A stretch of 64,000 nt of DNA from Scolanthus callimorphus (taxonomy: Eukaryota; Cnidaria; Anthozoa; Actiniaria; Edwardsiidae), in NCBI GenBank assembly GCA_033964015.1, contig CM066912.1:16589399-16653398 (forward strand). The letters run 5' to 3'. This document shows positions 3,806-59,244 of the stretch, piece after piece. Position numbers and translations under genes: made by a program. Numbering within the stretch: the first letter of the stretch is position 1; each line of letters opens with the position of its first letter. The notes beneath the pieces are model-generated. The model had not been told where the DNA came from. It did not search any database and saw only the letters and a list, made by a program, of their open reading frames with translations.

Positions 3806-4098
3806 CCATTTAGAAGCAAGTCGTGATTTCTCTCGATTCTGATTGGCTAGTGATTGCTCAACACGATGGCCTAAACGGGATCATTTTCCTCCATCTCGCT
3901 ATGCAGAGAGCTGGCAATTTATCCGATTTATGTCAAATTTGGCAAGGTATTAGTATCTGGAAAGATGTTTCGATTGATGGAATTCTGAAGATGATGACTG
4001 ACAACGTGACGTCACTACAGGCCGGTGAAAATGGCGCCAAAGTTAGGAATTTGTATATCAACCATTTTAAACATTGGTAAATGTTCTAACCACTAAGC

Positions 4099-4605
4099 GG
4101 ACTCCAAAACCGAAAACTTGATTAAAATCGAACATATAGATCAAAAGTTATTAAGAAATCGCGATTTCGAAGCTCCCGCCGGAATCTCTGGAATTTAATT
4201 GTTCCTTGACCATATAAGGTAAAATTTCGGCGATTTTAAACGTCAACGCGTTAACTCCTATGGTGTTTTTTCAAGCAGTTATAGCAATATTTTAAAATTT
4301 GTAGTTACTTTGACTTTGACATGAAACTCGATACCTTGTTTACGTCACTTTGACGTAAAAATTGAATGTTAGAAGACGTCATACTGACGTAATATGACGT
4401 CTAAAGTATCAGATGACTAAGTCAAAGTAACTACAAATTTTGAGACATTCCTATATCTGAAACGTATGTCTCCAACAGATTTAAGCAGCGCCCTCTCTAA
4501 ATCGCCGAATTTTTACCATATATGGTCAAATTGACCATCAAAGCGGGAAATTTGAACTTTTTTAATTAGTCATAACTTCTCTCGGTTTTATCAGAATTCA
4601 GTCCG
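4099..4605. mobile_element. MITE-like element with nested inverted repeats
   Basis: Outer ends GGACT...AAAACCGA (4099) and its inverse (ending near 4605), an arm of about 32 bp (4203-4236 against 4499-4530, containing TTCGGCGATTT) and an inner arm GTAGTTACTTTGACTTTGAC (4301) against 4421-4437 fold together. TGACG-type motifs crowd the loop. No coding content. Confidence 0.65.
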
Positions 4606-5540
4606 GTTTTCGATACAGTCGTTCACTTACTGCGACGATTAAATAGAAACTGATTGCATAGCCGATTTCCTAACTAAAAATTTTTGGGCTATGTTCCCAC
4701 GGTGATTATGACGTCACATTGTCAATCAATCAAACCGTGTCATCATATTTTTGATTGGCATTCCCTGGGCTGCTCACCTGCCAAGTTATAGCTCATTCGC
4801 GCTACGTGTTAAAACGTTATGAGCGTAATTCGTATGAAAGCTGTCCAACTGGAGGAAAATAGCTACGCTATAACCATCCTGAATTGCAATTGTTTTACGA
4901 CAGTCATGTGAAAACCGCTCTATTCTCTACACAATCTATGCACAATAAGACTTTAAGCTTCAAGACATTCAGCACATCGATGTTTCATGTGACAATAACG
5001 ATGCAGGGCCCGACATCAACTTTTTTCAAGAGGTACCATTGGCGCCTAAATAAAAAATTGTGTTGCCAAATAGTGAAGTTTGGTCGCCATAATAGAAATC
5101 TGGTCGCCATCGTTTTCTCTTCTGTTTGTTATAAGAAAGAGTTTTTTCGTTAACTCTAAGAGTATTTGAGCTATTGTAGCAGGTTTCAGGACTTTTCTTT
5201 GCCTCAGAATACAGTGATTTGGCTGCCTAGCTTCTTGTCTTTCGTTTTTCATACTTTAGTAGTTACAGGACAAGCCTCCCGAAACCGTTTTTAAGGAACG
5301 TTTTAACTCTTTTGCGCGCGAAGCGCTGCGGAAAATTTAGAGTCCAGCATGTGAAATTACCGCATGTTAAGATAACTTTGATATGCAGGGTGCAAATCGC
5401 ATTGCCAAAATTCCACTTTCAATCTTTTTTTAAGAAATGGTTCACGTTTTTGTGCAAAATATCCAAAATATAGGGCATTTCAAGACAACATAGGGAAATA
5501 TAAGAGAATCTCAAAAATATAGGAAATATAGGGCCGGTTG
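4606..5540. other. No gene seen
   Basis: Only short frames below 90 codons without recognisable motifs. A TGACGTCA palindrome lies near 4709. Confidence 0.5.
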
Positions 5541-12859: not shown

Positions 12860-13249
12860 CTATACTAGCTTGTGCTCTGGATACTTCTCTCGTAAGTAAG
12901 TAGCAGGATCCTTGCGTTGTCGGCTGCTTCTTTGGATTTCGCCTTCCTTTGCTGTGCCTTCGGTCTCTTTGTTACACCCCTCCTCGCTTGTCGGATTCAC
13001 TATGTCGTCTTCTACATGGTGTTTCTTCGATGTGATCTCCTGCGTTCCGGGATGATCGTCTCCCACCTTCCGCATTCCCTCTTCTGGCGTATGTCTGGGT
13101 CCTTCTGGCACCTGTGCTCGTGCCGACATCCACTTATTGGCCTCCTGTTCTGAGCTGTATGGTACTTTTTTGAAATGCGCTGTAGTGCGTGTGATAGCAC
13201 TGCCATCTGTTCTCCTTGCCACCACTTGTGATCCTTTGCGGAACTGCAC
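12860..13249 (-). pseudogene. Gypsy-1 pol C-terminal tail
   Basis: A minus-strand frame of 129 codons starts VQFRKGSQVVARRTDG (about residue 1) and ends in a hydrophilic tail rich in E, T and R with RSSRQRKDPATYLREKY. This is the normal end of a Gypsy integrase/pol. Its upstream part lies at 17823-18525, on the far side of the 4.56-kb element that split it. It has no start codon of its own function. Confidence 0.75.
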
Positions 13250-13254
13250 CTCAG

Positions 13255-13859
13255 AGTAGTATAGTAGGGACCGAATTAGCCTTTTTTTTTAGGAGCCCGG
13301 TGAGGAGCTGAGGAGCCCGGTGAGGAGCCATGACGTCACAAATGAGGAGCCCGGTGCGGAGCCTCGGAGCTTTTTTGCGGAGCCCGGTGCGGAGCGTCAC
13401 AAATGAGGAGCCCGGTGCGGAGCAGCGGAGCGGGTGAGCCGGATGACGTCACAGACTATTTTTTTGAGGGTGAGCATGAGGGTGAGCCTAGTGGTGAGGA
13501 GCCCTATTGTAATTGGAGACAATACTAGGATTAACACTGGAATGCTTTTGTTCAGTAGGGATTAAGAAAAACAAAGGGAGACAATACCAGGATTAACTAA
13601 CGGAAGTCTTTTGTGTAAGGGATTAGTGTTTGTTGACTGCAACTCGAATATTAATTATAGTGTAAGGTTTTGTTTATGCGGAGATAACATGATGCAGAGA
13701 TATGGTTTATTCTCTTTATTATAAAATGAATGAGTATCGATTACATAAAATACTATTACATAAAATACTACCACTAACGGTTAGGTAAATAAACGCTTTA
13801 TTAAGAAATTGATTACAAGTCTAAAGTCTGTTCACTAGTATTCTTGACTTGAGGTAGAG
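13255..13859 (+). repeat. Left terminal inverted repeat of the compact Polinton
   Basis: It pairs with 17228-17816. The outer 200 bp holds five or so GAGCCCGGTG(A/C)GGAGC subrepeats and two TGACGTCA palindromes (13330, 13443). The inner part contains CGATTACATAAAATACTA repeated twice. Confidence 0.9.
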
Positions 13860-13882
13860 GTTTCCCTATTAGCTACAATTTT

Positions 13883-15190
13883 TTATTTAATTTTATACGG
13901 AGAAGAACGGTAAGAACGCAACCGATAGCGTCTCAACGTCGATTTTAGATACGGTCCGTCTTTATCGGCATCATCATCCAAATAATTCTTTAATATATTT
14001 TTTAATTTTGGCTTCTTTGGGGTAATACTCGCTGATGGTGGCGGTGTCAAGGTCAGTTCTGGAAGTGTTGGGGTCGGCGGAACAAAGGATGTCTTGGGAG
14101 ATTCTGCCACCTTTCCCGAATAGGGTATCGTGGCTGGCTCGGGCGATGATAACGGGATACTTTGGGGAGTAGTGTAGGTAGGTGTTGTTACTGGTGGTTC
14201 TACACTCGCTGGAGGGTTGTGACCTGCTTGGTGCTTCATTCGCAGCAAATCGTTTTGAAGCTGCGTGTATCGTATCACCTTGTCACCTTCACTCATATTT
14301 TGACTGTGAAGGATGTCATTCATTTTGTCGTGTAGTTCTCTCATGCGCCGCTTCTCTGGAGAAACATCCATATTTTGATAACGAAGAAATTTTAGGAGCT
14401 CTTTCCCGAAGGCCTCTTCCGTTTTCTCATTGGCTGTCACTTCCCCAGGAAGGACATTGGTTCGTAATCTGCAGTTGTCGTTGGTTGCTGGTTTTAAGTC
14501 AAGAAACAGGTAGCCAAAAGGTTTCCTGACGGCCTCTTCATACTTGTCAAGAAAGTAATGCGTGTTGCGTGGATACATTTGTTTGGCCAACGTCATCACT
14601 TGCAATTGGTCTCTAGGGTTCTTGAATAGGACCAAGTAGTGGCTGTTTAAGGATATGTTTCTATTGACTTTTCCTTGGTGAAATAGGTTTTGAAGGATAT
14701 AAATCACTGACAGATTTCTGTGATGGGATCCCTTGGTGAATAAGTTTGCAATCCTGTTGTCATTCCCAGTTTCAATCATCTGATCGTCGATGACAATGAG
14801 GTTCCGCACATTGACGTCAAAGTATGAGTCTTGCTCAATGTTGGTTGGGATTCCTTTAACGAATTCTATTTGTGGGGTAGACATGGCTAAGGCGGTGTAG
14901 GCTGGCTGCCACTGAGCAAAGCACCAGACTATGCGTTGTGGTGGAGGCGAGATTGTCTTTTGCCAATGCTCAAGGAGTTTCTGGACCCACACAGTTTTTC
15001 CACTTCCGGTCATTCCCCCCACCATACAGGTAAAAGGATGTTGGAGTTGAAAGGGACCGCAATCAGAGGAGTTGCTTAATACATGACCCACTGGAAGAAA
15101 GTTGGTCATTTTGTGCTGGGAAAGCCTGTGGCGTTTAAGGTTATCACTTCTGGAAAATTCCTTTCCACACTGAGGACAGTTATGTACCAT
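13883..15190 (-). CDS. C2H2 zinc finger fused to FtsK/HerA-type packaging ATPase
   Basis: I start the 435-residue protein at the ATG at 15190; upstream frame extension runs into a CTC satellite and lies before a TATA box. Residues 5-26 form a classical C2H2 finger (C5, C8, H21, H26). A P-loop ATPase follows: Walker A GGMTGSGKT at 58-66 and Walker B LIVIDD at 131-136. Downstream TKGSHHRNLSVIYILQNLF fits the A32/FtsK-HerA genome-packaging family of Polinton-like viruses. The last third is proline-rich and then strongly basic, suggesting DNA binding. The frame is intact. A32-like ATPases load viral DNA into capsids. The finger fusion is unusual in my knowledge of the family. Confidence 0.8.
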   Translation of the reverse strand: MVHNCPQCGKEFSRSDNLKRHRLSQHKMTNFLPVGHVLSNSSDCGPFQLQHPFTCMVGGMTGSGKTVWVQKLLEHWQKTISPPPQRIVWCFAQWQPAYTALAMSTPQIEFVKGIPTNIEQDSYFDVNVRNLIVIDDQMIETGNDNRIANLFTKGSHHRNLSVIYILQNLFHQGKVNRNISLNSHYLVLFKNPRDQLQVMTLAKQMYPRNTHYFLDKYEEAVRKPFGYLFLDLKPATNDNCRLRTNVLPGEVTANEKTEEAFGKELLKFLRYQNMDVSPEKRRMRELHDKMNDILHSQNMSEGDKVIRYTQLQNDLLRMKHQAGHNPPASVEPPVTTPTYTTPQSIPLSSPEPATIPYSGKVAESPKTSFVPPTPTLPELTLTPPPSASITPKKPKLKNILKNYLDDDADKDGPYLKSTLRRYRLRSYRSSPYKIK

Positions 15191-15243
15191 GTCTTCTCTA
15201 TGAAGATCAACATTATATGACCAGAATATCTTGCTATTACTGC

Positions 15244-15251
15244 TTATATAC
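15244..15251 (-). promoter_or_regulatory. TATA box for the ATPase gene
   Basis: TATATAAG on the minus strand, about 54 bp upstream of the ATG at 15190. A transcription start about 30 bp downstream would fall near 15220 and give a short leader, which supports the chosen start codon. Confidence 0.55.
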
Positions 15252-15261
15252 CTTTCGTTTA

Positions 15262-16015
15262 CCCTCCTCCTCAGTCCCTTCTCTTCCTCCTCCTCCTCCT
15301 CCTCACTACCTCCTCCTCCTCCTCCTGACCACCTCCTCCTCACTACCTCCTCCTCACTACCTCCTCCTCACTTCCTCCTTCTCCTCACTACCTCCTCCTC
15401 CTCACTACCTCCTCCTCACTTCCTCCTCCTCCTCACTACATCCTCCTCACTACCTCCTCCTCCTCACCACCACCACCTCCTCCTCACCACCTCCTCCTCA
15501 CCACCTCCTCCTCACTACCTCCTCCTCCTCACTACCTCCTCTTCCTCACTACCTCCTCCTCACTTCCTCCTCCTCCTCACTACCTCCTCCTCCTCACTAC
15601 CTCCTCCTCACCACCTCCTCCTCACTACCTCCACCTCCTCACTTCCTCCTCCTCCTCACTACCTCCTCCTCCTCCTCCTCACCACCTCCTCCTCACTACG
15701 TCCTCCTCACTACCTCCTCCTCCTCCTCACCACCTCCTCCTCACTACCTCCTCCTCCTCCTCACTACCTCCTCCTCCTCACTACCTCCTCCTCCTCACTA
15801 TCTCCTCCTCCTCCTCGCCACCACCTCCTCCTCACTACCTCCTCCTCACTACCTCCTCCTCACTACCTCCTCCTCCTCACTACCTCCTCCTCCTCACTAC
15901 CTCCTCCTCCTTACTACCTCCTCCTCCTCCTCACTAACCTCCTCCTCCTCACTACCTCCTCCTCCTCAGTCACTACCCCTCACTACATCCTCCTCCTCCT
16001 CACTACCTCTTCTTC
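15262..16015. repeat. Polypyrimidine satellite (CTCCTC / CACTAC units)
   Basis: About 750 bp of CCTCCTCCTCACTAC-type units with variable numbers of CTC triplets. The plus strand is almost pure pyrimidine plus A, with no stops in several frames, which produces spurious frames of over 270 codons. It separates the two divergent promoters of the compact Polinton. Confidence 0.95.
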
Positions 16016-16045
16016 ATCTATGGTTTCTATGAACTTCACAAATGC

Positions 16046-16054
16046 TATAAATAG
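16046..16054 (+). promoter_or_regulatory. TATA box for the small gene
   Basis: TATAAATAG, about 40 bp before the ATG at 16086. Confidence 0.55.
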
Positions 16055-16085
16055 GAGCTCCATTGACACTGTTTCATTTGTAACC

Positions 16086-16358
16086 ATGTCTCGAGTTGTG
16101 AAGAACAACGTAGGCTTCCTACAAGCATTATGTAGTTGCCCGCCACATCAGCGTCAATACCTTCTCGACACAGCCACCCCAGAACAAGTTCATGCTCTAA
16201 CTCAGATTGCCCATAATGTTGGAAATTGATATATTCCATTGGGTGACGAGAAGTTTAGTAACATAAGACGACACGGGGAGGACCTAGGCGCCTTGGCTAG
16301 TGGTTCCACCACTTTCAAAGAAAAAAAGCAAATCCCTGTTTTAACATTACTGCTCTGA
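16086..16358 (+). pseudogene. Small Polinton-type protein gene with in-frame TGA
   Basis: ATG at 16086 in a good context (AACCATGTC) opens 47 codons ending at TGA 16227-16229. The same frame then continues without a stop to TGA at 16356-16358 (90 codons in all), and the second half is basic. The part before the stop, with LLDTATPEQVHALTQIAHNV, matches my recollection of a small helical protein seen beside packaging ATPases in Polinton-like elements of aquatic animals; its role is unknown to me. Either a nonsense mutation, readthrough, or a sequencing error explains the internal stop. Confidence 0.6.
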
Positions 16359-16361
16359 GGG

Positions 16362-16369
16362 TATAAATA
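16362..16369 (+). promoter_or_regulatory. TATA box for the zinc-ribbon gene
   Basis: TATAAATA lies 34 bp before the ATG at 16396 and 49 bp before the next in-frame ATG at 16411. A start of transcription near 16390 would leave almost no leader for the first ATG, so 16411 may be the true start. Confidence 0.5.
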
Positions 16370-16395
16370 CACGTCACGTTTGAGGATCAAATCAT

Positions 16396-17274
16396 TTGCC
16401 AATGGTATTCGCTATGAAACGTTCACTGGACTCAGATAGCGATATGTCTAGCGATGACGAGGATGAGCAAGAGGAGGAAAATGATGGACCTCGAATCACA
16501 GACGTGTTGAGTCAGATTTCAAATGCTGTTCCCTATCAAGATGCCCGAGACCTTATGCACAGTATAGCCACCTCTAAGAATATTTTGTTTTGGTCGCCTA
16601 ACGGGGAAATGATTCGTCGTAAACGCAGAATACCAAACACAGTTATTGCTGATCTTGTAGAGTTTGTATTACTACCTTTCAGCGAAGATATTTCACCTCC
16701 AAGAGGTTTAAAGTCTTTTCTCGAGGGACTGGCAGAATTAGGAATTGATAAGAGACTGATCCGTAACAAAGCAGCTTTGAACGATGTAGTTACCTATGAA
16801 AGTAGGGAGACACAAAGCGACCAATCTAGCGATGATGAAACGGATGATAATAATGAAAGTGATGAAGAAACTGACCAATTTAGTGACGACGAGGAAGCGG
16901 AGCAATCCGATGATGAGGAAACTGAGCAATCCAGTGACGAAGACATGAGACAAGAGGGAGATGGAGTCTCGGGTGACATTGAAAAGAAAGTCGATGGATT
17001 ATGCAGTCATTGTGAAGGGAACAATTCTTATCGCATCGATATTGCTGGGTGTGGAAAATGCTTGTGGCAAGATAAAATGTCCGGACGTTACGAAAAAGAC
17101 AAACTCTACGAATGCCCAGTTTGTCAAAAGCAATCCCCAATGGGAAAAGCTTGGAAAGGGTCTTTTCTGCGGTGTTATGATTGCATGGCGGGCTCGTATT
17201 ACAACAAGAAAAAAGATGAGTGGAAAACTCTACCTCAAGTCAAGAATACTAGTGAACAGACTTTAGACTTGTAA
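16396..17274 (+). CDS. Acidic protein with two C-terminal zinc ribbons, function unknown
   Basis: 292 codons, intact. Residues about 9-30 and 140-190 are runs of D, E and S, with repeated (E)TDQ/EQS-SDDEE units. The C-terminal third carries four CxxC pairs (C203/C206, C219/C222, C240/C243, C260/C263), enough for two zinc ribbons. The middle is a helical domain with a basic RRKRR patch (about 74). I do not recognise the family. Acidic plus zinc-ribbon design could suit a transcription or DNA-packaging factor, but that is inference. The last 15 or so codons lie inside the right TIR, so the matching sequence is duplicated near the left end. Confidence 0.75.
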   Translation: MPMVFAMKRSLDSDSDMSSDDEDEQEEENDGPRITDVLSQISNAVPYQDARDLMHSIATSKNILFWSPNGEMIRRKRRIPNTVIADLVEFVLLPFSEDISPPRGLKSFLEGLAELGIDKRLIRNKAALNDVVTYESRETQSDQSSDDETDDNNESDEETDQFSDDEEAEQSDDEETEQSSDEDMRQEGDGVSGDIEKKVDGLCSHCEGNNSYRIDIAGCGKCLWQDKMSGRYEKDKLYECPVCQKQSPMGKAWKGSFLRCYDCMAGSYYNKKKDEWKTLPQVKNTSEQTLDL

Positions 17275-17816
17275 TCAATTTCTTAATAAAGCGTTTATTT
17301 ACCTAACCGTTAGTGGTAGTATTTTATGTAATAGTATTTTATGTAATCGATACTCATTCATTTTATAATAAAGAGAATAAACCATATCTTTGCATCATGT
17401 TATCTCCGCATAAACAAAACCTTACACTATAATTAATATTCGAGTTGCAGTCAACAAACACTAATCCCTTACACAAAAGACTTCCGTTAGTTAATCCTGG
17501 TAGTGTCTCCCTTTGTTTTTCTTAATCCCTCCTGAACAAAAGCATTCCAGTGTTAATCCTAGTATTGTCTCCAATTACAATAGGGCTCCTCACCACTAGG
17601 CTCACCCCCATGCTCACCCTCAAAAAAATAGACTGTGACGTCATCCGGCTCCGCGGCTCCGAAAACAGCTACGCGGCTCCGCACCGGGCTCCGCAAAAAC
17701 GCTCCGAGGCTCCGCACCGGGCTCCTCATTTGTGACGTCATGGCTCCTCACCGGGCTCCTCAGCTCCTCACCGGGCTCCTCAAAAAAACGGCTAATTCGG
17801 TGCCCCCTATACTACT
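17228..17816 (-). repeat. Right terminal inverted repeat of the compact Polinton
   Basis: Inverse of 13255-13859, including the GAGCCCGGTG subrepeats, TGACGTCA sites (about 17634 and 17733) and the AG/CT terminus. Confidence 0.9.
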
Positions 17817-17822
17817 CCTCAA

Positions 17823-50656: not shown

Positions 50657-51298
50657 TCACATGTTATTTAAATCGTTTACATTTGGAAGCTCAATGTCAT
50701 ATGTGTATGGATGCCTCAGGAACAAACATAATCGTGAATATGGATGTGATTTTAGCAATTGCATATACTTCTTTCTGTCTTCAAAATTCAAGTCACCACC
50801 ATATTCATCAAATAGTGCCCTCATACATACATTGCTTGGATTAAAGAATGAAACCACACATGCTACATTCTCTCTGAAGTCTTTTGCTATAGATGTTAAT
50901 TGTTGTGTTAACACCCATACGGAGAGCCCTTCATGCCTCCCACTGAATGCTAAATTTATCAAATGATTTGACCTTTGTTTGAGATCCTTGCTAAATGCAC
51001 AATCATCAAGTATTATCAAAGTATCTGACCCTGAAAATAGCTCTTTCCAGTCTAATAACATATCATTTATTTCATCTATTGAATCTGCATCAGGTGAAAC
51101 GACTATAACTCGTGGATCATTGTTTGCAAACCCTTGATAGGTTTTATTTCTTACATAAGTAGGACATATCAACACGATGTATTCAAACTTCTTCTTGTAA
51201 GGTCCTCTAAGCTGTTCGATTAGATAATGGGTTTTACCTGAATTTGTACCTCCTGAGATGATACAATGAAACGGTAATTTATCTGTCAATTCTTCCAT
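50657..51298 (-). CDS. A32-like packaging ATPase of Polinton-like virus
   Basis: 213 codons, intact. Walker A SGGTNSGKT at residues 15-23, Walker B LIILDD at 94-99, followed by RSNHLINLAFSGRHEGLSVW and TQQLTSI, the arginine-finger and sensor-like blocks of the FtsK/HerA A32 family. This enzyme drives viral DNA into the capsid. It follows the capsid-like gene directly (10 bp gap), the usual neighbourhood in this virus lineage. It is only distantly similar to the ATPase at 13883-15190 and has no zinc finger. Confidence 0.85.
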   Translation of the reverse strand: MEELTDKLPFHCIISGGTNSGKTHYLIEQLRGPYKKKFEYIVLICPTYVRNKTYQGFANNDPRVIVVSPDADSIDEINDMLLDWKELFSGSDTLIILDDCAFSKDLKQRSNHLINLAFSGRHEGLSVWVLTQQLTSIAKDFRENVACVVSFFNPSNVCMRALFDEYGGDLNFEDRKKYMQLLKSHPYSRLCLFLRHPYTYDIELPNVNDLNNM

Positions 51299-51307
51299 AT
51301 ATATTAC

Positions 51308-52433
51308 TAATACATTATGCTTTTACAATTGTTCCCCTGTATTTCCATCAGAGCGTCGGCAGTCATATACATGACACAAGTAATAGTACCACTACCCGAA
51401 GCCGTTCTTTTCATTTCTAGTTGCACACCATCTCTAGTGTTACTAATGTGTAGACCGTTGCCGTGAATAGCATCATCATGATCAATCCGAACCGCTTGAC
51501 AGCTGCATCATAAAAATCAGATGACTCCATACCTTTGCTATATAGCCGATTTGGGACACCATCTACATTGATTTTAATAGATAACATAGCTGGGTTAACA
51601 AATTCACTATCACGAGAACCGTCTGCATGTGGTGTTGTAAATAGCAGTAGGATGCCAGTCATACTTCTACGAGGGATATTCACATTTTCGTTTAAAATAG
51701 AATCCGTCCCTTTGTTAATCGTGAACGTCTTATGAAGATGGATATTTTCATAATAGAATCCCTTCCCAATTTGATATGCCCCTTTGACTTCTTTTGCAAG
51801 ATAATCACTTGATATACTCTGGTATTCTAGCTCAAGATTGGAAATAGCATATGTAAATGGTTTTGTTTTGTCACTTGTGATTGTAAGATCTTTGGATAAA
51901 ACACCCCGTGGTTGTCTAGAATTGGATGCTCTAGAGGTAGTCTATATTTAGTGTTATAGACAGCTGCTTTATGCGACCTCAGCTGTATCCGTCGACACTT
52001 TATCACCCGCACCAGCTCTCAGTTTACGCACGTTGAGACTGGAAATACCTTCCTTCAGTCTATTTTCTCGTTCCTGTTTAGTTAGATGAACATCACTGTA
52101 TAATTTATATAAATCGTATCTATTCGTATCCTGTACCGTCTCTCCACCAAAATGTACCTTGTATCTAGTCTTCAAACATGCTGCTAAATTGTTAACAAAC
52201 CTATTATTTGCATGCTTATCCGTTCCAGTTAGAGCGATGTTAAACACCAATGCAAGGCTATTAGGTACCATAACCACATTGTCTGCTAGCTTAGGAACAT
52301 GGACATATAGAGTTTCACCAGGCTGTGCTTTATTTGGATTCATAGTAACACGGTTCAAACATGTTTCAGCCTTCAGCCCAAATGGTTGTTTGGGTTCTCT
52401 GTTTGGATTTAACTTATCCGCTATCGATGTCAT
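51308..52433 (-). pseudogene. Probable major capsid protein of Polinton-like virus, frameshifted
   Basis: An N-terminal frame of 154 codons (52433-51969: KLNPNREPKQPFGLKAET, RFVNNLAACLKTRYKVHFGG, LYKLYSDVHLTKQERENRL) shifts near 51965. It continues with KYRLPLEHPILDNHGVFYP and shifts to INKGTDSILNENVNIPRRSM and LLFTTPHADGSRDSEFVNP. After a final shift near 51450 it ends at 51308. About 375 codons with three or more breaks. Placement beside the packaging ATPase and the beta-rich pattern suggest a jelly-roll capsid protein. That identity is inferred and should be tested by structure prediction. Confidence 0.6.
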
Positions 52434-52479
52434 ATAAATAATAGAGACGTAATACTTTTATATGATAATGGAGAAAATA

Positions 52480-52727
52480 TATTACTCAACCGAGGGATAT
52501 TGGAAAGGTAATTCAGCTATTCAGACAGAGCAAAAGTAAGTGAATCTGTCGCAAAATGATGGATACAGAAGCAGACAATATAGCAGATATATTTACCTGA
52601 TTACATTCCTAGACCCTATTGAGTCTAGCGGACAGGACTAGCGAATAAGACAACGGATTCTTTATTGCTCAATCCAACATGGCGGCCCGAATGCTACAAA
52701 GCCTGCTGTCCCTACCGCTGACCAACA
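52480..52727 (-). mobile_element. Gypsy-3 3' LTR, partial
   Basis: On the minus strand a purine tract (GGGGGAGA, 52728-52735) precedes TGTTGGTCAGCGGTAGGGAC, with AATAAAG near 52660. The end is uncertain, placed only by the return of the virus region. Confidence 0.5.
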
Positions 52728-54745
52728 TCTCCCCCTTTTTAACGAAAAAAAAAATCTAACAGTATACTATAATCATGTTCTATAATAATATCATGTTCTA
52801 CAGTGTTCCTGTGATACTCTTGATGCTGGTTCTAGACATCTACTTCAGGAGACTTCCCTGCCAGATCTTGTCTGTCTTGCCAAGTTGGGTTGCTCTGGTT
52901 GTTCTTGGATGTCTTGAGTCAAGGTTTTCTTTTCCGCAAGCCCATCAACGGGGTTTGTTTTATTGGCCTTTTTGGCCTGTTGGGGCGGGTGCTGATTGTC
53001 TTGTATTCGTGGTGTGGGGCCAATTTCTGAGTTGTGGGTGATTTCCTTGGGCGGACTAAGCTGGGCTGGTTGGGTAGTACATGGTACCGTTGTTGGGTAT
53101 TCTCTCATCTGACCCGTGACGGGTGTATCGCCCGACCGTGGTTGGCCGTCAGTTGGTGGTGGCGCTGCGGGTCTCAGCTGGATTCTGTTCCTCCTGATGT
53201 TGATTCCACGTGGGGTACGAATTGTGTAAGAGCTTGCTGTCTCATCTGTCTCGATGACTTCCCCATAGTACCATGGTTTTCCGCGTTGAGTTGGCCGTGG
53301 TTTGGCATACGCATAGTTGCCAATGTCGAGTGGTCTTTGTTGTGCTCCTGTTGTCTTGTCATAGTAGGCTTTGCTATCACTCCATTTCTTCATTATTTCT
53401 TGCTGTACAACTCGATAATTGACCATGGAAGGTGCCAGGAGTTGTTCTGCGGTGGGCAGTGTGGTTCTGGTCCTTCTTGAAAACATGCGCTGTGCTGGTG
53501 AATAGGTGTGGCCTTGAGGTGGGGTGTTTCTGTACATCAGCACCGGGTGCATCGCGTTTTGAAAATCGTTTGCCTTTTCCAACATTGATTTTGTGACCTT
53601 GACAGCAGCTTCCGCTCTTCCATTGCCTTTTGGGTGGTACGGCGAAGACGTGGTGCGCTTGAAACCAAAAATCAGTTGAGAACTGATCATATTCTTTGCT
53701 TATAAACTGTGAACCGTTGTCAGTGTGACATATCACGGGAACGCCATACCTTGCAAAATGGGCCTTGTCTTTCTCGATGATTGTGGAGGACAGGGTGTCT
53801 TCTAGCTTGTCAACTTCGATCCAGTCTGAGAAGTGATCGACGGTAACTAGATAGCTCTGGGTTTCGTGTTCACATATGTCTTGGCTGACTAATTCCCATG
53901 GCCTTGTAGGTATCGGTAGAGACTTCATTGGCTCTTTCGGGGCTGACTTACCGTATTGAGCGCAGATGGCGCAGGAATCACAGGCGTCTTGAATCGTTTT
54001 TCTCATTCCGGGCCAGAATAGAACTTCACGTGCCATACGTATGTTAGATTCCACGCCAAAGTGATTTGCGTGTATCTTCGATAGCATGGGTTTGTACATC
54101 GATTGGGGTACCATTACTTGTGTGCCTTTGTAAATTACGCCGTTCTGTATTGACAGTTCGTCCCTGTAGTTCCAGTAGGGACGGAGTGATTCTTGTACAT
54201 TTGTTTTGTCTTCTGGCCATCCATGTATGATGGTGTCTCGTAGGGCTGTCAATGTAGCGTCTTTGCTTGTCTCTTTCTGTATTTGGCTCTCGGTGTTCTC
54301 TCTTAACCTCGGGTTCTTGTCTGTGTGTGTAGCCGCCATCTCTATGCGGAATACTTCGAAAGATGTTGCTTTCGCCGATATGGGGTGGTGAAGGGCTGCC
54401 CGAGAGAGAGTGTCAGCCAGATAGAGGGGGTCGGGCCTCTCTTGTAAGTAAGCTTAAATCGATAGCGTTGTAATATCATGATCATCCTCTGTAAGCGTGC
54501 CGGGGCCTTGTTGAGAGGTTTCTTCATGATAGTTTCCAGTGGTTGGTGGTCGGTGTGGACTTCTATATCAGATTTGCCATATAGCCACTGGTCAAATTTC
54601 TGAAAGCAGTTGCAGATGGCCAGGCACTCTTTCTCAATTTGCAAGTATCGCTGTTCCGTTTGGCTCATACTTGAGGATGTGAAAGCCACTGGTTGGAGTT
54701 TACCGTCGTCATTTGGTTGGAGAAGAGCTCCAAAAGCTTTCACAG
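52728..54745 (-). pseudogene. Gypsy-3 pol (RNase H and integrase), 5'-truncated
   Basis: Frames from right to left: 54745-54342 RNase H (AFTSSSMSQTEQRYLQIEKE, HTDHQPLETIMKK). 54339-53640 integrase (H2C2 CDSCAICAQYGK, VTVDHFSDWIEVDKL, CHTDNGSQFISKEY). 53690-52845 the rest (YHPKGNGRAEAAVKVTKSM with the catalytic E, MYRNTPPQGHTYSP, C-terminal GNYAYAKPRPTQRG). Frameshifts near 54345 and 53665. gag, protease and polymerase are missing. It separates the virus integrase from the capsid-like gene. Confidence 0.85.
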
Positions 54746-55366
54746 ATATATTCAAGAAAGTTAAAATATCCTGAAGCAATAATTGTTGATCCTGGAACAG
54801 AGTTTAAGGGTGATGTTACTAAGCTTATGAAAAAACATAATGTAACCATTCAACGGTCAGAAGCTAGTAACCATAGAGCTCAAGCCTATGTAGAAAGAGC
54901 AAATAGAACATTATCAGAAAAACTATTTAGCCATCAGTATGCACACGAAATAATTACTGATGATCGATCGAGAGAATGGGTAAAACGTTTGCCGGCTGTT
55001 TTAAAATCAATAAATAATGAAAAGATACGAATAACTGGAAAAGAGCCTCTTAATGCAATAAAAATGAAAGATGTAAATATAAGAAATGTCGAATATAAGC
55101 GTCCTGTAGGATTGGACGAGAAATGATTACCGCCAGGTGTAAAAGTTAGATGCTTATATGCAGATGGTGAACAGGAAGGTGGTGATAAACGTCGTGCAAC
55201 TGATCCCATATGGTCAATAGAGATCTATGATATATCACGTACTGTGGTATCGTCTGGTCAACCTGTGTTATATTACCTTTCTAATGGCGCGCCGAAAAGA
55301 TCTTTCGTTAGAGAGGAATTACAAGTCGTTCCGGAAGATCTCAGTTACCTCCTGATAGTGTTTTAA
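54735..55366 (+). pseudogene. Polinton-type integrase, N-truncated, in-frame TGA
   Basis: The frame 54713-55126 contains LKYPEAIIVDPGTEFKGDV (second catalytic aspartate region) and SNHRAQAYVERANRTLSEKL (catalytic glutamate), then FSHQYAHEI. TGA at 55124-55126 interrupts it, but the same frame stays open to TAA at 55364-55366, giving a chromodomain-like tail (WSIEIYDISRTVV). The first catalytic aspartate is missing because Gypsy-3 adjoins. It integrates the virus genome; inactive here. Confidence 0.8.
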
Positions 55367-55410
55367 AATTTTGAATACCCCATATGACCAATAGAGGTAT
55401 AAAACATTCT

Positions 55411-56085
55411 TTATTCAATATTTTTGTATCCGTGAGCCTTTGTATGGATATTGTTTGGTTCTATATTTCGTTTGTCATCATCTCTTGATCTCTTGAAGTT
55501 GTAATTCGTCTTCGTCTTGCCGAAGACGCTGTTGTTCATCAACTTGAAGAAGTCCTTCTCAAAATCATTTTTTGCTGCTGTTCCAAGGTTAGTGTTCAGA
55601 CTAATATACTCATCCAACCAGGTGTTCTCTTCAAATGTGACACCTCTGTGGACTCTCGTCACTTTCAACCCAAAGCTCTCATATAGCTTTAGAGTCTCGT
55701 GATGTACAACATACTTGGTCTTATCGTCTAGATTTGGAATGAGTTTCTCCACTTTGTTAACCATTAGTCTCTGGGGTGCTAGAGGATACTCATTATGCAA
55801 GTCATGAAGCTCAGTAGGATATCCAAGATCCACCTCTAGTATGCATGGTCGCTGTTTCCATTTCTTAATCTCTTTCTCTTTCATCCATCTGAAACCGTGA
55901 GTAGGCAGCTTCTGTGACATAGCCCAGCCATAGAGATTGTTAGCGTCGAGATACTTGATGAGTGTTGACTTTTGTTTCGTGTTGAATGATTTCATATATT
56001 TGTTGTTAGCTTTTGCATACCGTTTGCGGATCATACTGATTCCTCCTCGAATACCGGACTCATCATAGCGGAGCTCCTTTGCGGC
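55411..56085 (-). pseudogene. Protein-primed family B DNA polymerase fragment
   Basis: The minus-strand frame from about 56085 (DESGIRGGISMI) reads RKRYAKANNKYMKSF and DANNLYGWAMSQKLP, the motif A region with the metal-binding aspartate. It ends with FFKLMNNSVFGKT, the motif B Kx3NSxxG-type block. Exonuclease, terminal-protein and motif C (DTD) parts are absent; the frame ends at 55411, 45 bp from the convergent integrase stop. It matches the protein-primed PolB of Polintons and adintovirus-like viruses. It is a truncated remnant. Confidence 0.85.
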
Positions 56086-57045
56086 TGAAGGCCGCAGAGC
56101 GGAGCACCATAACTAAGAAAAAAGCGTCCAAACGATCACAAATATAGCGCATGTATGATATTCCCACAGGGTACCCAAAGCATCACAGGTCGCAAAGGGA
56201 TGCGAGTGAATTTTCGACGTCGAGATTTCCCGCCATTTCCCGTGCGTGCCGTGAGGCCTGACGTCACAGATTGGCATGACGTCACAACATGGCGCCGCCA
56301 AGTGAGTAACACCCGAATGACTTGGGAGGGGTGGGTGGTCGATGCTTTGGTGATGGTCGCGCGTTCGCGATCACTCGCCGGTGACGTCACAACATGGAGC
56401 CGAGCGACGCGACAGGGGGAGGGGTAGGTAGTCAGGGGGGCGCTGCTCGCTCGATACTGACGTCACACTACAGGAAACCAAGAAAGAAACCGAGAAGATT
56501 TATAATATTGAGTTACTTCGATTCGTGGCTAATGCACAAGACGAAACTACACTTGGGAGCAGCTGTGAGAACCAACTAGAATCGTACTACGCAAATTTCG
56601 GAGCAACAAGTGTAAGATGTAGAAGTCAAAAGAGTTCTTCTCGTTGACAACAAGAAGCCGAGAGGCGAGATTCGGCGAGCAGCCAACTATGACAAACATG
56701 AAACACTACAGTCGTGGTCTAGCGGACATGAGGCGTTAATATAACAGAACAGTGGCTTTTGGGGGGACTAAAATTACATGGAGGATCCGTAAAAGGTGGG
56801 TTTCTATTCACTTTGTAATATTGTTGTCGACTGTCGCCGTCTTTGTTGTTTTAGAGCGAAGCTAGCCTGGACCACATGAAAGTCATGAACTACCCAAATA
56901 CTGCTTTGCTAGATTCTTAATTGGTTAATTGAATAAAACTTTTTTTGATTTCCACATAACGGTAGTTAAGTGTTAGTCCCCTCTCTCAAAACAGGGGGTA
57001 ATTTTTTCAGAGACATTGTGGTTCAAACTAAATAATAACTACTTA
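56086..57045. other. No gene; CRE-palindrome cluster
   Basis: TGACGTCAC occurs at about 56258, 56277, 56382 and 56458 in a GC-richer stretch with two AACATGG(C/A)GCCG words. No coding frame above 120 codons is convincing. It could be a promoter-like or TE-derived segment. Confidence 0.5.
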
Positions 57046-57555: not shown

Positions 57556-59037
57556 CTAATCCTCTTCATCGCTCTCGATGATTACACGGCGCCGTTTCTT
57601 GGAGCTCTCGAAGGTGACAGGACCGTTGAACACTTGGAACTGGCAATTGGAAATGTTTGCTCCCGCAAAAATCCCCGGATTGCTCGAATCAGATGTGCTG
57701 GCAGATGATAATAAGGCGCTCGATGAGAGATTCGACTTCACTTGTATTTGGCCTTGGCTTGTATGGAGGATCTTGCTGCAACTGTAAGAGGCAGTGGACG
57801 AGCCAGAAATCAGCGCATTATTGCTTGAACTATTGGCCGACCTGCTAAGGATACAGGACATCTGGCGTTGGTGACTTGTACTGGCTGTTTTGTACGACTG
57901 GAGACTGTCGATGCTTTTGTGGCCACTGAGTTGGGCAATGAATATTTCTGGTGCGTTTGCATCCAATAACCGTGAGATTTGAGTTTTCCTCACAGAATGG
58001 TTACTGATCTTGCCATCTGAGCTTATAATTCCGGCATTGGATGCTGCTGTTGACAGAAATTTGCCGATTTGGGATATACCGAGTGGTGCTTTCTTGTACC
58101 AAACTTCGGTTCGCGAGTTCCTGTTGTGGTTTATAGCCAAGAAGAATGGTGACTCGGGTTTATTCATTTCAACAGGTCTGTGGCTTCTGAACAGCTTGTA
58201 CGTCTCCACAGGGCATCTGTCGTTGCCAGTTGCATAGGCCTTTGGTTTGAACGCTCTTTGGTGGCCGTTCTCCTGTCCTTTTCGGGTTTTTGTACCTCTC
58301 TCTGCCTGCCAAACGAGGAACTCGCGTTCGTCAACAGGGTCTCGGTGAAGCTCAATATCTCCCCAACAGAGCTTACGACTCTCGTCTCTTGCACGAAAGC
58401 CGAAATGGAGAGCCAAAAACCACCATACTGTTCTCTGGAGGATATCTGGGGTGGAGTGGCCAAGCTGACCGGACTGAAATAATCGGTCTTCGTCTTCTTC
58501 GGTGAGGGCTTTTGTCGCATTTGGCCGGTTCCCCTTTCCGGCGACATTCACCAGCTGTTTACGTTTTGCTGCCAGCACCTTGCGTGAGTCTTCAAATTCC
58601 TGGTCCTTCAGAATGTTCATTGAGGATTTTTGCTCTGTCAGCCAACGCTGGATACTCCTCTGGATGCTAGATAGGGAGTCTGGCTCATACTCTTCACCGT
58701 TTCGCTTACGCGCCTTGATGAAAAACTTGGACAGCAATTGGTCAAGTTGTTTCACAGGTAAAGTCTCTATTCTCAGATCTTCCTCCAAACCTTCCCCTTC
58801 CAAGAAACGACGAAAACTTTTCATGTCAGCAGTTGTTTTCCTGACTGTGTTTTCGCTTTTTTGTTCGTTAACAAAGTCTCTTATTTCCTGGCTATCTGAT
58901 TTATTTTGAGGCTGTGTTTCCTCGATGTCTGTTTCCTCGGTTTCGACATTTGCAACTTTTTCAATCGTGCTTTCATCTTCCGCCGGCTCTGGGAAATAAA
59001 ATTCACTTTCTGAGTGTTCCTCCTCACTTCCACTCAT
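57556..59037 (-). CDS. Tyrosine recombinase of Crypton/KIAA1958 (DUF3504) type
   Basis: I start at ATG 59037 (MSGSEEEHSESEFYF); upstream in-frame codons are hydrophobic and AT-rich. 493 codons, intact, one exon. Residues 1-60 are acidic. 61-140 resemble a SAM-like core-binding domain (ENTVRKTTADMKSFRRFL). The catalytic domain shows R215 (FGFRARDE), H347/R350 (NHSVRKT), H373 (SGHKS) and Y382. The last 100 residues are serine-rich with a basic KKRRR signal near the end. Enzymes of this family cut and rejoin DNA through the tyrosine. Cryptons and the domesticated animal KIAA1958-like genes carry it. No TIRs are expected. Either a live Crypton or a domesticated gene. Confidence 0.8.
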   Translation of the reverse strand: MSGSEEEHSESEFYFPEPAEDESTIEKVANVETEETDIEETQPQNKSDSQEIRDFVNEQKSENTVRKTTADMKSFRRFLEGEGLEEDLRIETLPVKQLDQLLSKFFIKARKRNGEEYEPDSLSSIQRSIQRWLTEQKSSMNILKDQEFEDSRKVLAAKRKQLVNVAGKGNRPNATKALTEEDEDRLFQSGQLGHSTPDILQRTVWWFLALHFGFRARDESRKLCWGDIELHRDPVDEREFLVWQAERGTKTRKGQENGHQRAFKPKAYATGNDRCPVETYKLFRSHRPVEMNKPESPFFLAINHNRNSRTEVWYKKAPLGISQIGKFLSTAASNAGIISSDGKISNHSVRKTQISRLLDANAPEIFIAQLSGHKSIDSLQSYKTASTSHQRQMSCILSRSANSSSNNALISGSSTASYSCSKILHTSQGQIQVKSNLSSSALLSSASTSDSSNPGIFAGANISNCQFQVFNGPVTFESSKKRRRVIIESDEED

Positions 59038-59244
59038 TATTTTTCTTCTCCAGTTAAAGACGTTATGATTATGTAGAAAATAAATCCTTTCTTCTTTCAG
59101 GAAATTTAGTTTTAAAAGTTTAGGTTGTTTTTCTTTTACGAGAATCGCCTGGATTTTGCTTAAAAATGTAAACAAGCACACCGGCGGGAAAAATCCGTAT
59201 CGGACACGGCTTGTACGGGGAAATACAAGCCTGTCAACAGCCAA

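What the first reader, a model, noticed from the sequence alone, without database searches (positions are those of the whole stretch)
13255..17816. A 4.56-kb Polinton-like element with 600-bp inverted ends and only three genes
Seen: long TIRs beginning AG, near-matching 6-bp flanks CCTCAG/CCTCAA, and a disrupted Gypsy gene whose reading lies on both sides. Known: Polintons have long AG-starting TIRs and 6-bp target duplications but are normally 10-20 kb with PolB, integrase and capsid genes. Inferred: a miniature, helper-dependent Polinton (satellite-like) that keeps a packaging ATPase but lost replication and capsid genes. Keeping the ATPase intact suggests recent mobility or use.
Basis: partly seen in the sequence, partly recalled or inferred. 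Interest (0 to 1): 0.88.

Follow-up and report, generated by a model that had tools for sequence, protein, structure and literature searches.

The report
Satellite Polinton with own packaging motor
A genome that is likely a coral's carries many copies of a 4-kb Polinton-type mobile element that has kept three genes, one of them a predicted DNA-packaging motor, but no polymerase, integrase or capsid gene, so it would have to borrow those, likely from full-length Polintons with matching ends in the same genome.

Summary
In detail: a 4,562-bp insertion with 611/595-bp inverted ends, (AGT)2//(ACT)2 termini and a 6-bp target duplication (5 of 6 bases) splits a Gypsy gene. It is one of many: 565 such ends occur in the genome. 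I read 19 three-gene copies (3.9-4.6 kb); 18 have perfect 6-bp duplications, 17 of them different. All read TIR - ATPase - small protein - ORF2 - TIR. The genes are not passengers: median dN/dS among copies is 0.33 (ATPase), 0.11 (small), 0.57 (ORF2), and 0.16-0.25 against a second subfamily. Four 14.0-15.7-kb elements share the end pattern and hold a hexon capsid gene; the one read also has integrase, protease, PolB pieces and its own finger-less ATPase, 46% identical to the miniature's. Of 85 matches to that ATPase type, 54 lie within 6 kb of a scored capsid gene; of 97 miniature-type matches none lies within 24 kb. So the miniature is likely a separate, long-lived, helper-dependent lineage with its own zinc-finger packaging ATPase, not a fresh deletion of a resident Polinton. 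Use of helper enzymes and capsids, and why the ATPase is kept, are inferred. The window copy is old (small gene broken). Reader partly right.

The parts
13249..13254 (.). left copy of 6-bp target duplication, CCTCAG
13255..13865 (+). left terminal inverted repeat (611 bp), begins AGTAGT
13883..15190 (-). ATPase gene, 435 aa: C2H2 finger (residues 3-26) and A32-type P-loop ATPase (GMTGSGKT; NLIVIDDQM); predicted DNA-packaging motor
15244..15250 (-). TATA-like box (TATATAA) 60 bp before the ATPase start codon
   Evidence: a box on the ATPase side of the spacer in 18 of 19 copies
15263..16009 (.). CCTCCTCCTCACTA minisatellite between the divergent genes; copy-specific
16046..16052 (+). TATA-like box 40 bp before the small gene
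   Evidence: 18 of 19 copies
16086..16229 (+). small gene, 47 aa in this copy, cut by an in-frame stop; 103-104 aa in other copies; homologous to the gene next to the ATPase in the full-length element read
16362..16368 (+). TATA-like box 52 bp before ORF2
   Evidence: 19 of 19 copies
16414..17274 (+). ORF2, 286 aa: conserved N-terminal region predicted helical, acidic middle, CxxC pairs at the C end; its last codons lie inside the right TIR
17222..17816 (-). right terminal inverted repeat (595 bp); AATAAA at 17285 follows ORF2, the inverted copy (13802, - strand) follows the ATPase
17817..17822 (.). right copy of 6-bp target duplication, CCTCAA

Best explanation
The element is one copy of a many-copy family of 4-kb Polinton-type elements that carry three genes with dN/dS below 1, among them a predicted DNA-packaging ATPase, and that likely depend on full-length Polintons of the same genome for DNA polymerase, integrase and capsid. 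Shown: matching (AGT)2 ends in short and long elements, 6-bp duplications, a fixed three-gene layout with TATA-like boxes, dN/dS below 1 for all three genes, and an ATPase type that differs from that of the full-length element read. Inferred: a helper's protein-primed PolB copies the miniature from its shared ends, the helper's integrase inserts it, and the miniature's own ATPase (with the small protein and ORF2) steers its DNA into helper hexon capsids. That would explain why exactly these genes stay under selection while the rest is missing, making it a satellite that brings its own packaging motor.
For: 565 exact end matches, control 0. 18 of 19 three-gene copies with both exact ends have perfect 6-bp duplications (17 different sequences), lengths 3,912-4,572. 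Neutrality rejected on disjoint pairs for ATPase (p 1e-17), small (1e-13), ORF2 (0.001); dN/dS 0.16-0.25 against the second subfamily L045. Of seven long pairs (9.3-15.7 kb) compared, the four of 14.0-15.7 kb hold both a hexon and a full-length-type ATPase match; the one read has RVE integrase, penton-like, core-like, hexon, protease and PolB pieces. Scored miniature-type ATPases within 24 kb of a scored hexon: 0 of 97; full-length-type within 6 kb: 54 of 85. (AGT)2//(ACT)2 ends plus 6-bp duplications are Maverick marks (PMC8097293, passages).
Against: No experiment or expression data. The bases shared with the full-length element read are only about 41 (85-88%); the rest of the repeat differs. 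PolB is in pieces in that copy. Three of seven long pairs (9.3, 9.5, 11.4 kb) hold neither a scored hexon nor a scored full-length-type ATPase. Genome searches score only part of the candidates (97 of 1,729; 96 of 436; 150 of 1,062), so a zinc-finger ATPase beside a capsid gene could have been missed. Packaging is inferred from homology; the ATPase model is poor (pLDDT 58) and its fold search gave SRP GTPases and unrelated receptors, 1 of 1,066 matches at E<=0.001. Within the family ORF2 selection is weak (dN/dS up to 2.47 between pairs). Five copies listed have a further minus-strand ORF of 121-219 aa over spacer and small gene, not followed up.
Confidence: 0.6

Rival explanations
1. The miniatures are recurrent deletion derivatives of an unseen full-length Polinton or free virus that carries the zinc-finger ATPase. 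Selection acts in that parent; the miniatures are passive by-products moved by it.
For: Selection on a parent would also give low dN/dS between derivatives. Relatives of the ATPase are very numerous in other genomes (745 proteins), contexts unknown. Genome searches were partial.
Against: The 19 copies read share one layout, ATPase turned round against small-ORF2, whereas the full-length element L043/L044 and the adintovirus-like contig L001 have ATPase-small-ORF2-like in tandem. Two subfamilies with different repeats keep the same three genes. None of 97 scored ATPases of this type lies within 24 kb of a scored capsid gene.
Confidence: 0.25
2. An ordinary non-autonomous Polinton: only the ends matter; the three genes are hitch-hikers on their way out.
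For: Many copies have broken frames; a 1.2-kb copy with part of the ATPase only exists (L021), and TIR pairs of 1.8-3.7 kb hold no scored ATPase or hexon. Named non-autonomous Polintons seem to exist (Polinton-1N1_DR, PMC9341505, one passage; N as 'non-autonomous' is recalled).
Against: Median dN/dS of 0.1-0.6 within and 0.16-0.25 between subfamilies; 28 of 97 scored ATPase places run without a stop from residue 7 or earlier to the last residue (counted); TATA-like boxes in 18-19 of 19 copies.
Confidence: 0.1
3. The genes are kept because they act in transposition or gene control inside the nucleus (for example the finger binds the ends, or the products hinder the helper), not in packaging.
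For: The ATPase has a DNA-binding-type finger that differs between subgroups and ORF2 has zinc-ribbon-like cysteine pairs.
Against: The ATPase and small protein match neighbours of hexon genes in L001 and L043/L044.
Confidence: 0.3

Closest known systems
Polintons/Mavericks (Polintoviricetes)
   Same: (AGT)2//(ACT)2 termini, TIRs of several hundred bp, 6-bp duplications, A32-type ATPase; end pattern shared with 14-15.7-kb hexon-bearing elements of the same genome
   Different: 4 kb instead of 15-20 (range as in PMC5718144, passage); no PolB, integrase, capsid or protease found; zinc-finger ATPase of another type
Adintoviruses (definition: PMC11071296, passages)
   Same: L001 and L043/L044 have BLAST-recognisable hexon, adenovirus/Ulp1-like protease, RVE integrase and an A32-type ATPase next to homologues of the miniature's small gene and, more weakly, ORF2 (chromodomain seen in L001 only)
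   Different: none of the defining genes was found in the miniature itself
Non-autonomous Polintons of Repbase (e.g. Polinton-1N1_DR)
   Same: presumably moved in trans (recalled meaning of the name)
   Different: only the name was seen; I found no description of one with kept, selected genes
Virophages and phage satellites (P4, PICI) (recalled)
   Same: small element that would live off a larger virus's capsid while supplying a packaging or assembly function
   Different: different gene families; here the presumed helper is a relative with the same ends; parasitism untested
MITEs (features as in PMC2872659, passages)
   Same: uniform short size, many copies, presumed dependence in trans
   Different: MITEs do not code for proteins; this family does, with dN/dS below 1

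Membership tests
Polinton/Maverick (by cis features) | (AG)3 or (AGT)2 end motif | tested here: met
   AGTAGT...ACTACT in the window and in 19 further paired loci; motif from PMC8097293. These loci were found by their ends, so the motif is partly built in.
Polinton/Maverick (by cis features) | 6-bp target-site duplication | tested here: met
   18 of 19 three-gene copies perfect, window 5 of 6; L045 perfect; 1.2-kb L021 5 of 6
Polinton/Maverick (by cis features) | TIRs of several hundred bp | tested here: met
   611/595 bp in the window
Polinton/Maverick (autonomous) | protein-primed PolB | tested here: not met
   no room for it among the ORFs of the window copy; no tblastn hit with the window's 207-aa PolB piece in L002-L042, a weak probe (E 0.005 to the PolB of L044)
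Polinton/Maverick (autonomous) | retrovirus-like integrase | tested here: not met
   no tblastn hit of L001 integrase in L002-L042; the same probe finds it in L043 at 47%
Polinton/Maverick (autonomous) | DJR major capsid, minor capsid, protease | tested here: not met
   no tblastn hits in L002-L042, found in L043; 0 of 97 scored miniature-type ATPases within 24 kb of a scored MCP
Polinton/Maverick (autonomous) | A32/FtsK-type packaging ATPase | tested here: met
   Pox_A32 in 18 of 21 family members at E<=0.001 (window protein below Pfam's cut-off); 46% to the full-length ATPase
Adintovirus | hexon, OTU-PolB, chromodomain integrase | tested here: not met
   hexon and integrase not found in the miniature; OTU domain not looked for
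Virus satellite | needs a helper to multiply and uses its particles | not testable with these tools
   only gene absence and shared ends are seen
MITE | non-coding | tested here: not met
   three genes with dN/dS below 1

The most novel reading that the evidence does not exclude
A eukaryotic capsid pirate: a long-lived satellite of animal adintovirus-type Polintons that shares only its helper's ends, borrows polymerase, integrase and hexon capsid, and brings its own zinc-finger packaging motor to load itself in preference to the helper, a Polinton counterpart of P4 and PICI satellites.
Probability: 0.35. Interest if true: 0.9.

Novelty: new variant of a known kind. Interest (0 to 1): 0.74.

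Why it matters
Mavericks/Polintons look like viruses, yet their particles have not been observed (abstract of PMC8097293 as listed). A non-autonomous Polinton that needs only its ends to move should have no reason to keep a packaging ATPase. That ATPase, a small core-like protein and ORF2 have dN/dS below 1 in a spreading 4-kb family, which is hard to explain unless packaging (or another virus-type function) matters in life. It gives a testable genomic sign of virions, a possible satellite-helper pair inside an animal genome, and a marker (zinc-finger ATPase without capsid) to look for elsewhere: the ATPase has 745 relatives in the protein database, and of the 120 listed those with a name are all from the coral Oculina patagonica.

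Tried and rejected
Full-length partner from the best TIR hits: the 14.8-kb pair C2:14275977-14290763 looked like the autonomous element but reads as the same three-gene element with two nested insertions. L024 likewise holds a non-LTR retrotransposon, and the C10:18134105-18154493 region reads as another interrupted copy.

Split (two-segment) genome, in which long elements lack the ATPase block: rejected for the one read, which has its own ATPase, small gene and ORF2-like gene, and, for the ATPase alone, for the other three long hexon-bearing pairs.

ATPase intactness as proof of recent use: rejected as weak. Viral contig scans with ATPase, ORF2, hexon and an end pattern found nothing; phage records nothing. 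Fold searches were uninformative. BLASTP of the window's small ORF and ORF2 against L001 found no usable match; intact small proteins of six other copies did match (E 4e-12 to 1e-14), while ORF2's link to L001 stays weak (hhalign E 4e-4 at 35% probability; hmmsearch E 0.09; tblastn to L043 E 0.002) and leans on gene order.

Literature: searches for non-autonomous, miniature or defective Polintons gave no description of one with kept genes; only openly licensed papers are held, and of the papers named here I saw passages or listings only. The coral MITE paper PMC2872659 concerns piggyBac elements (passages).
Full report
1. The observation. The element lies at 13255-17816. Its inverted ends align over 611/595 bp with 574 matches and 21 mismatches; nine of the mismatches fall in one 24-bp block of the GC-rich repeats, leaving 12 of 571 (about 2%), counted by eye. 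It begins AGTAGTATAG and ends CTATACTACT. PMC8097293 (passages) gives (AG)3 and (AGT)2//(ACT)2 as the end motifs of vertebrate Mavericks, with 6-bp duplications. The flanks are CCTCAG and CCTCAA. Joined with a single 6-bp copy they give one Gypsy frame across the site; that Gypsy changes frame once more just upstream.

2. Genes. The ATPase (435 aa) has a C2H2 finger and a P-loop; Pox_A32 matches the window protein at E 0.00097 (below Pfam's cut-off) and 18 of 21 aligned relatives at E<=0.001. It keeps 79 of 83 columns that are invariant in the other 20 (the others deviate at 0-8). ORF2 (286 aa) has a conserved N-terminal region, an acidic middle and CxxC pairs; 11 homologues. The small ORF (47 aa) is broken: the stretch after its stop matches the small protein of contig L001 (score 46, 0 of 2,000 shuffles reach it), the stretch before it less well alone (98 of 2,000) but on the same diagonal. 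TATA-like boxes stand 60, 40 and 52 bp before the three start codons; 3.9% of random 80-bp stretches of the window have one.

3. A family. The pattern AGTAGTATAGNNGGNNNNGAATTANCC occurs 273 + 292 times in the 597-Mb genome, the reversed control 0 times. I read 19 three-gene copies with both exact ends (window included): 3,912-4,572 bp, median 4,261 (the longest, L018, has a doubled end); 18 have perfect 6-bp duplications with 17 different sequences (L020 and L022 share one and lie 3.5 kb apart, so probably one insertion duplicated), the window has one mismatch. A 1.2-kb copy (L021) has one mismatch. Not in these counts: fetched loci without two exact ends (L023, L025/L042, L028, L030-L032, L036, L039-L041; L032 was cut by the tool's length limit) and the interrupted copies L010/L011 and L024; L036 and L040 show small gene and ORF2 but no ATPase in the 8 kb before them, L028 a lone end. 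By DNA match all 19 keep the layout TIR - ATPase (outward) - spacer - small - ORF2 - TIR, though many frames are broken. ORF2 of the window copy ends inside the TIR, whose AATAAA follows both outer genes. TATA-like boxes: within 90 bp before the small gene in 18 and before ORF2 in 19 of 19; on the ATPase side somewhere in the spacer in 18, at the same place (221-223 nt from the end of homology) in 17.

4. Selection. Among copies with long frames (chosen from L010-L029 and the window; broken ones dropped) median dN/dS is 0.33 for the ATPase (9 copies; 0.17-0.55), 0.57 for ORF2 (10; 0.28-2.47) and 0.11 for the small gene (11, window not included; 0-0.77). On disjoint pairs neutrality is rejected: p 1.2e-17, 0.0013 and 1.1e-13 in that order. 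A 5,963-bp element with a perfect AACGAA duplication (L045) has different TIR interiors, two extra ORFs without Pfam match, and the same three genes; against it dN/dS is 0.20-0.25 (ATPase), 0.19-0.23 (ORF2) and 0.16-0.23 (small). In the window copy alone intactness proves little.

5. Full-length relatives. The L001 hexon finds 99 places, 96 of 436 candidates scored. Of 27 TIR pairs that I formed by eye from the first 100 of 565 ends, four (14,034, 14,105, 14,275 and 15,655 bp) hold a hexon match and a full-length-type ATPase match; nine hold a miniature-type ATPase (3.9-6.4 kb, and the interrupted 14.8-kb copy); 14 hold neither a scored hexon nor a scored miniature-type ATPase, three of them 9.3-11.4 kb long. 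In the 15,655-bp one I read 12.5 kb: RVE integrase, penton-like, core-like, hexon (488 aa, 35% to L001), protease (Pfam C48 below cut-off, 40% to the L001 protease), then on the other strand ORF2-like, small (34% to the miniature's), a finger-less ATPase of 212 aa (46%), and PolB in pieces, one of which matches Pfam DNA_pol_B_2. It shares only about 41 terminal bp with the miniature (85-88%).

6. Two ATPase types. With the full-length ATPase as query, 150 matches (of 1,062 candidates) split into 85 at 55% identity or more and 65 at 48% or less. Within 6 kb of a scored hexon: 54 of the 85 (at least one row is a second piece of a gene already listed); 0 of 5 in a 44%-identity group. I checked for the missing finger only in the one read. 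For 97 miniature-type matches (97 of 1,729 candidates scored) the nearest scored hexon is 24.1 kb away in one case, and over 25 kb away or on no common contig in all others; 0.8 neighbours within 25 kb were expected by chance.

7. Relatives elsewhere. L001, a 7.9-kb contig filed under a bacterial MAG, has ATPase - small - 229-aa protein - chromodomain integrase - penton-like - core-like - hexon - C5-like protease (below cut-off) (penton and core labels are recalled resemblances). The small protein is a clear homologue; the 229-aa protein matches ORF2 weakly in the expected place. A database hit names a hexon relative F54H12.2-like. ORF2 relative P0125 and ATPase relative P0073 sit on contigs of the same length (491,830) with 34 and 31 cluster members, as if they spread together in another genome too.

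8. Reading. Shown: a Polinton-ended, three-gene, many-copy family with selected genes, and resident long elements with the same end pattern. Inferred: movement by helper PolB and integrase, and packaging by its own ATPase into helper capsids. The tandem AGT at the termini fits protein-primed jumping-back (recalled). The host is likely a stony coral or relative, judged only from named hits to Oculina patagonica.

Noticed in passing
window 50657-56034 (-): Remnant of a different Polinton kind: A32 ATPase 50657-51298, likely capsid N-terminus 51969-52433 (no Pfam match, recognised from memory), PolB 55411-56034, with retrotransposon integrase ORFs between them. Its ATPase is only 25% identical to the element's.
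   Followed up: partly
L001:1-7899: Adintovirus-like animal-virus contig (hexon, penton-like, chromodomain integrase, protease, ATPase) filed under a Candidatus Nomurabacteria MAG, JAHFNN010000039.1.
   Followed up: partly
L045:756-1295 and 4911-5537: Two extra ORFs (179 and 208 aa) without Pfam match in the 6-kb subfamily of the same three-gene element.
   Followed up: partly
L012, L016, L023, L034, L035, spacer region: Minus-strand ORFs of 121-219 aa over the spacer and the small gene in the five copies listed; possibly chance, not followed up.
   Followed up: no
G000 C1:20136134, C1:21119740, C1:33494535, C19:60750: A further ATPase group, about 44% to the full-length one with frames of about 500 aa, 0 of 5 near a scored hexon; two lie about 5.7 kb from a matching TIR end.
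   Followed up: no
window, 15 places, e.g. 13331, 13444, 17636, 17733, 56259-56458: TGACGTCA (CREB/ATF-type site, recalled) occurs 15 times in 64 kb where about one is expected from its length alone; found near the ends of the element and of most copies.
   Followed up: partly
L020 and L022 (C12:4.386-4.398 Mb): Two copies with the same CCCGCA duplication 3.5 kb apart: probably one insertion duplicated with its surroundings.
   Followed up: no
L018:4291-4772: Copy with a doubled right end: an extra 481-bp end unit, each followed by GACATA.
   Followed up: no
window 57556-59244 (-): Crypton-like (recalled label) tyrosine recombinase ORF, 562 aa (DUF3504, Phage_integrase).
   Followed up: no
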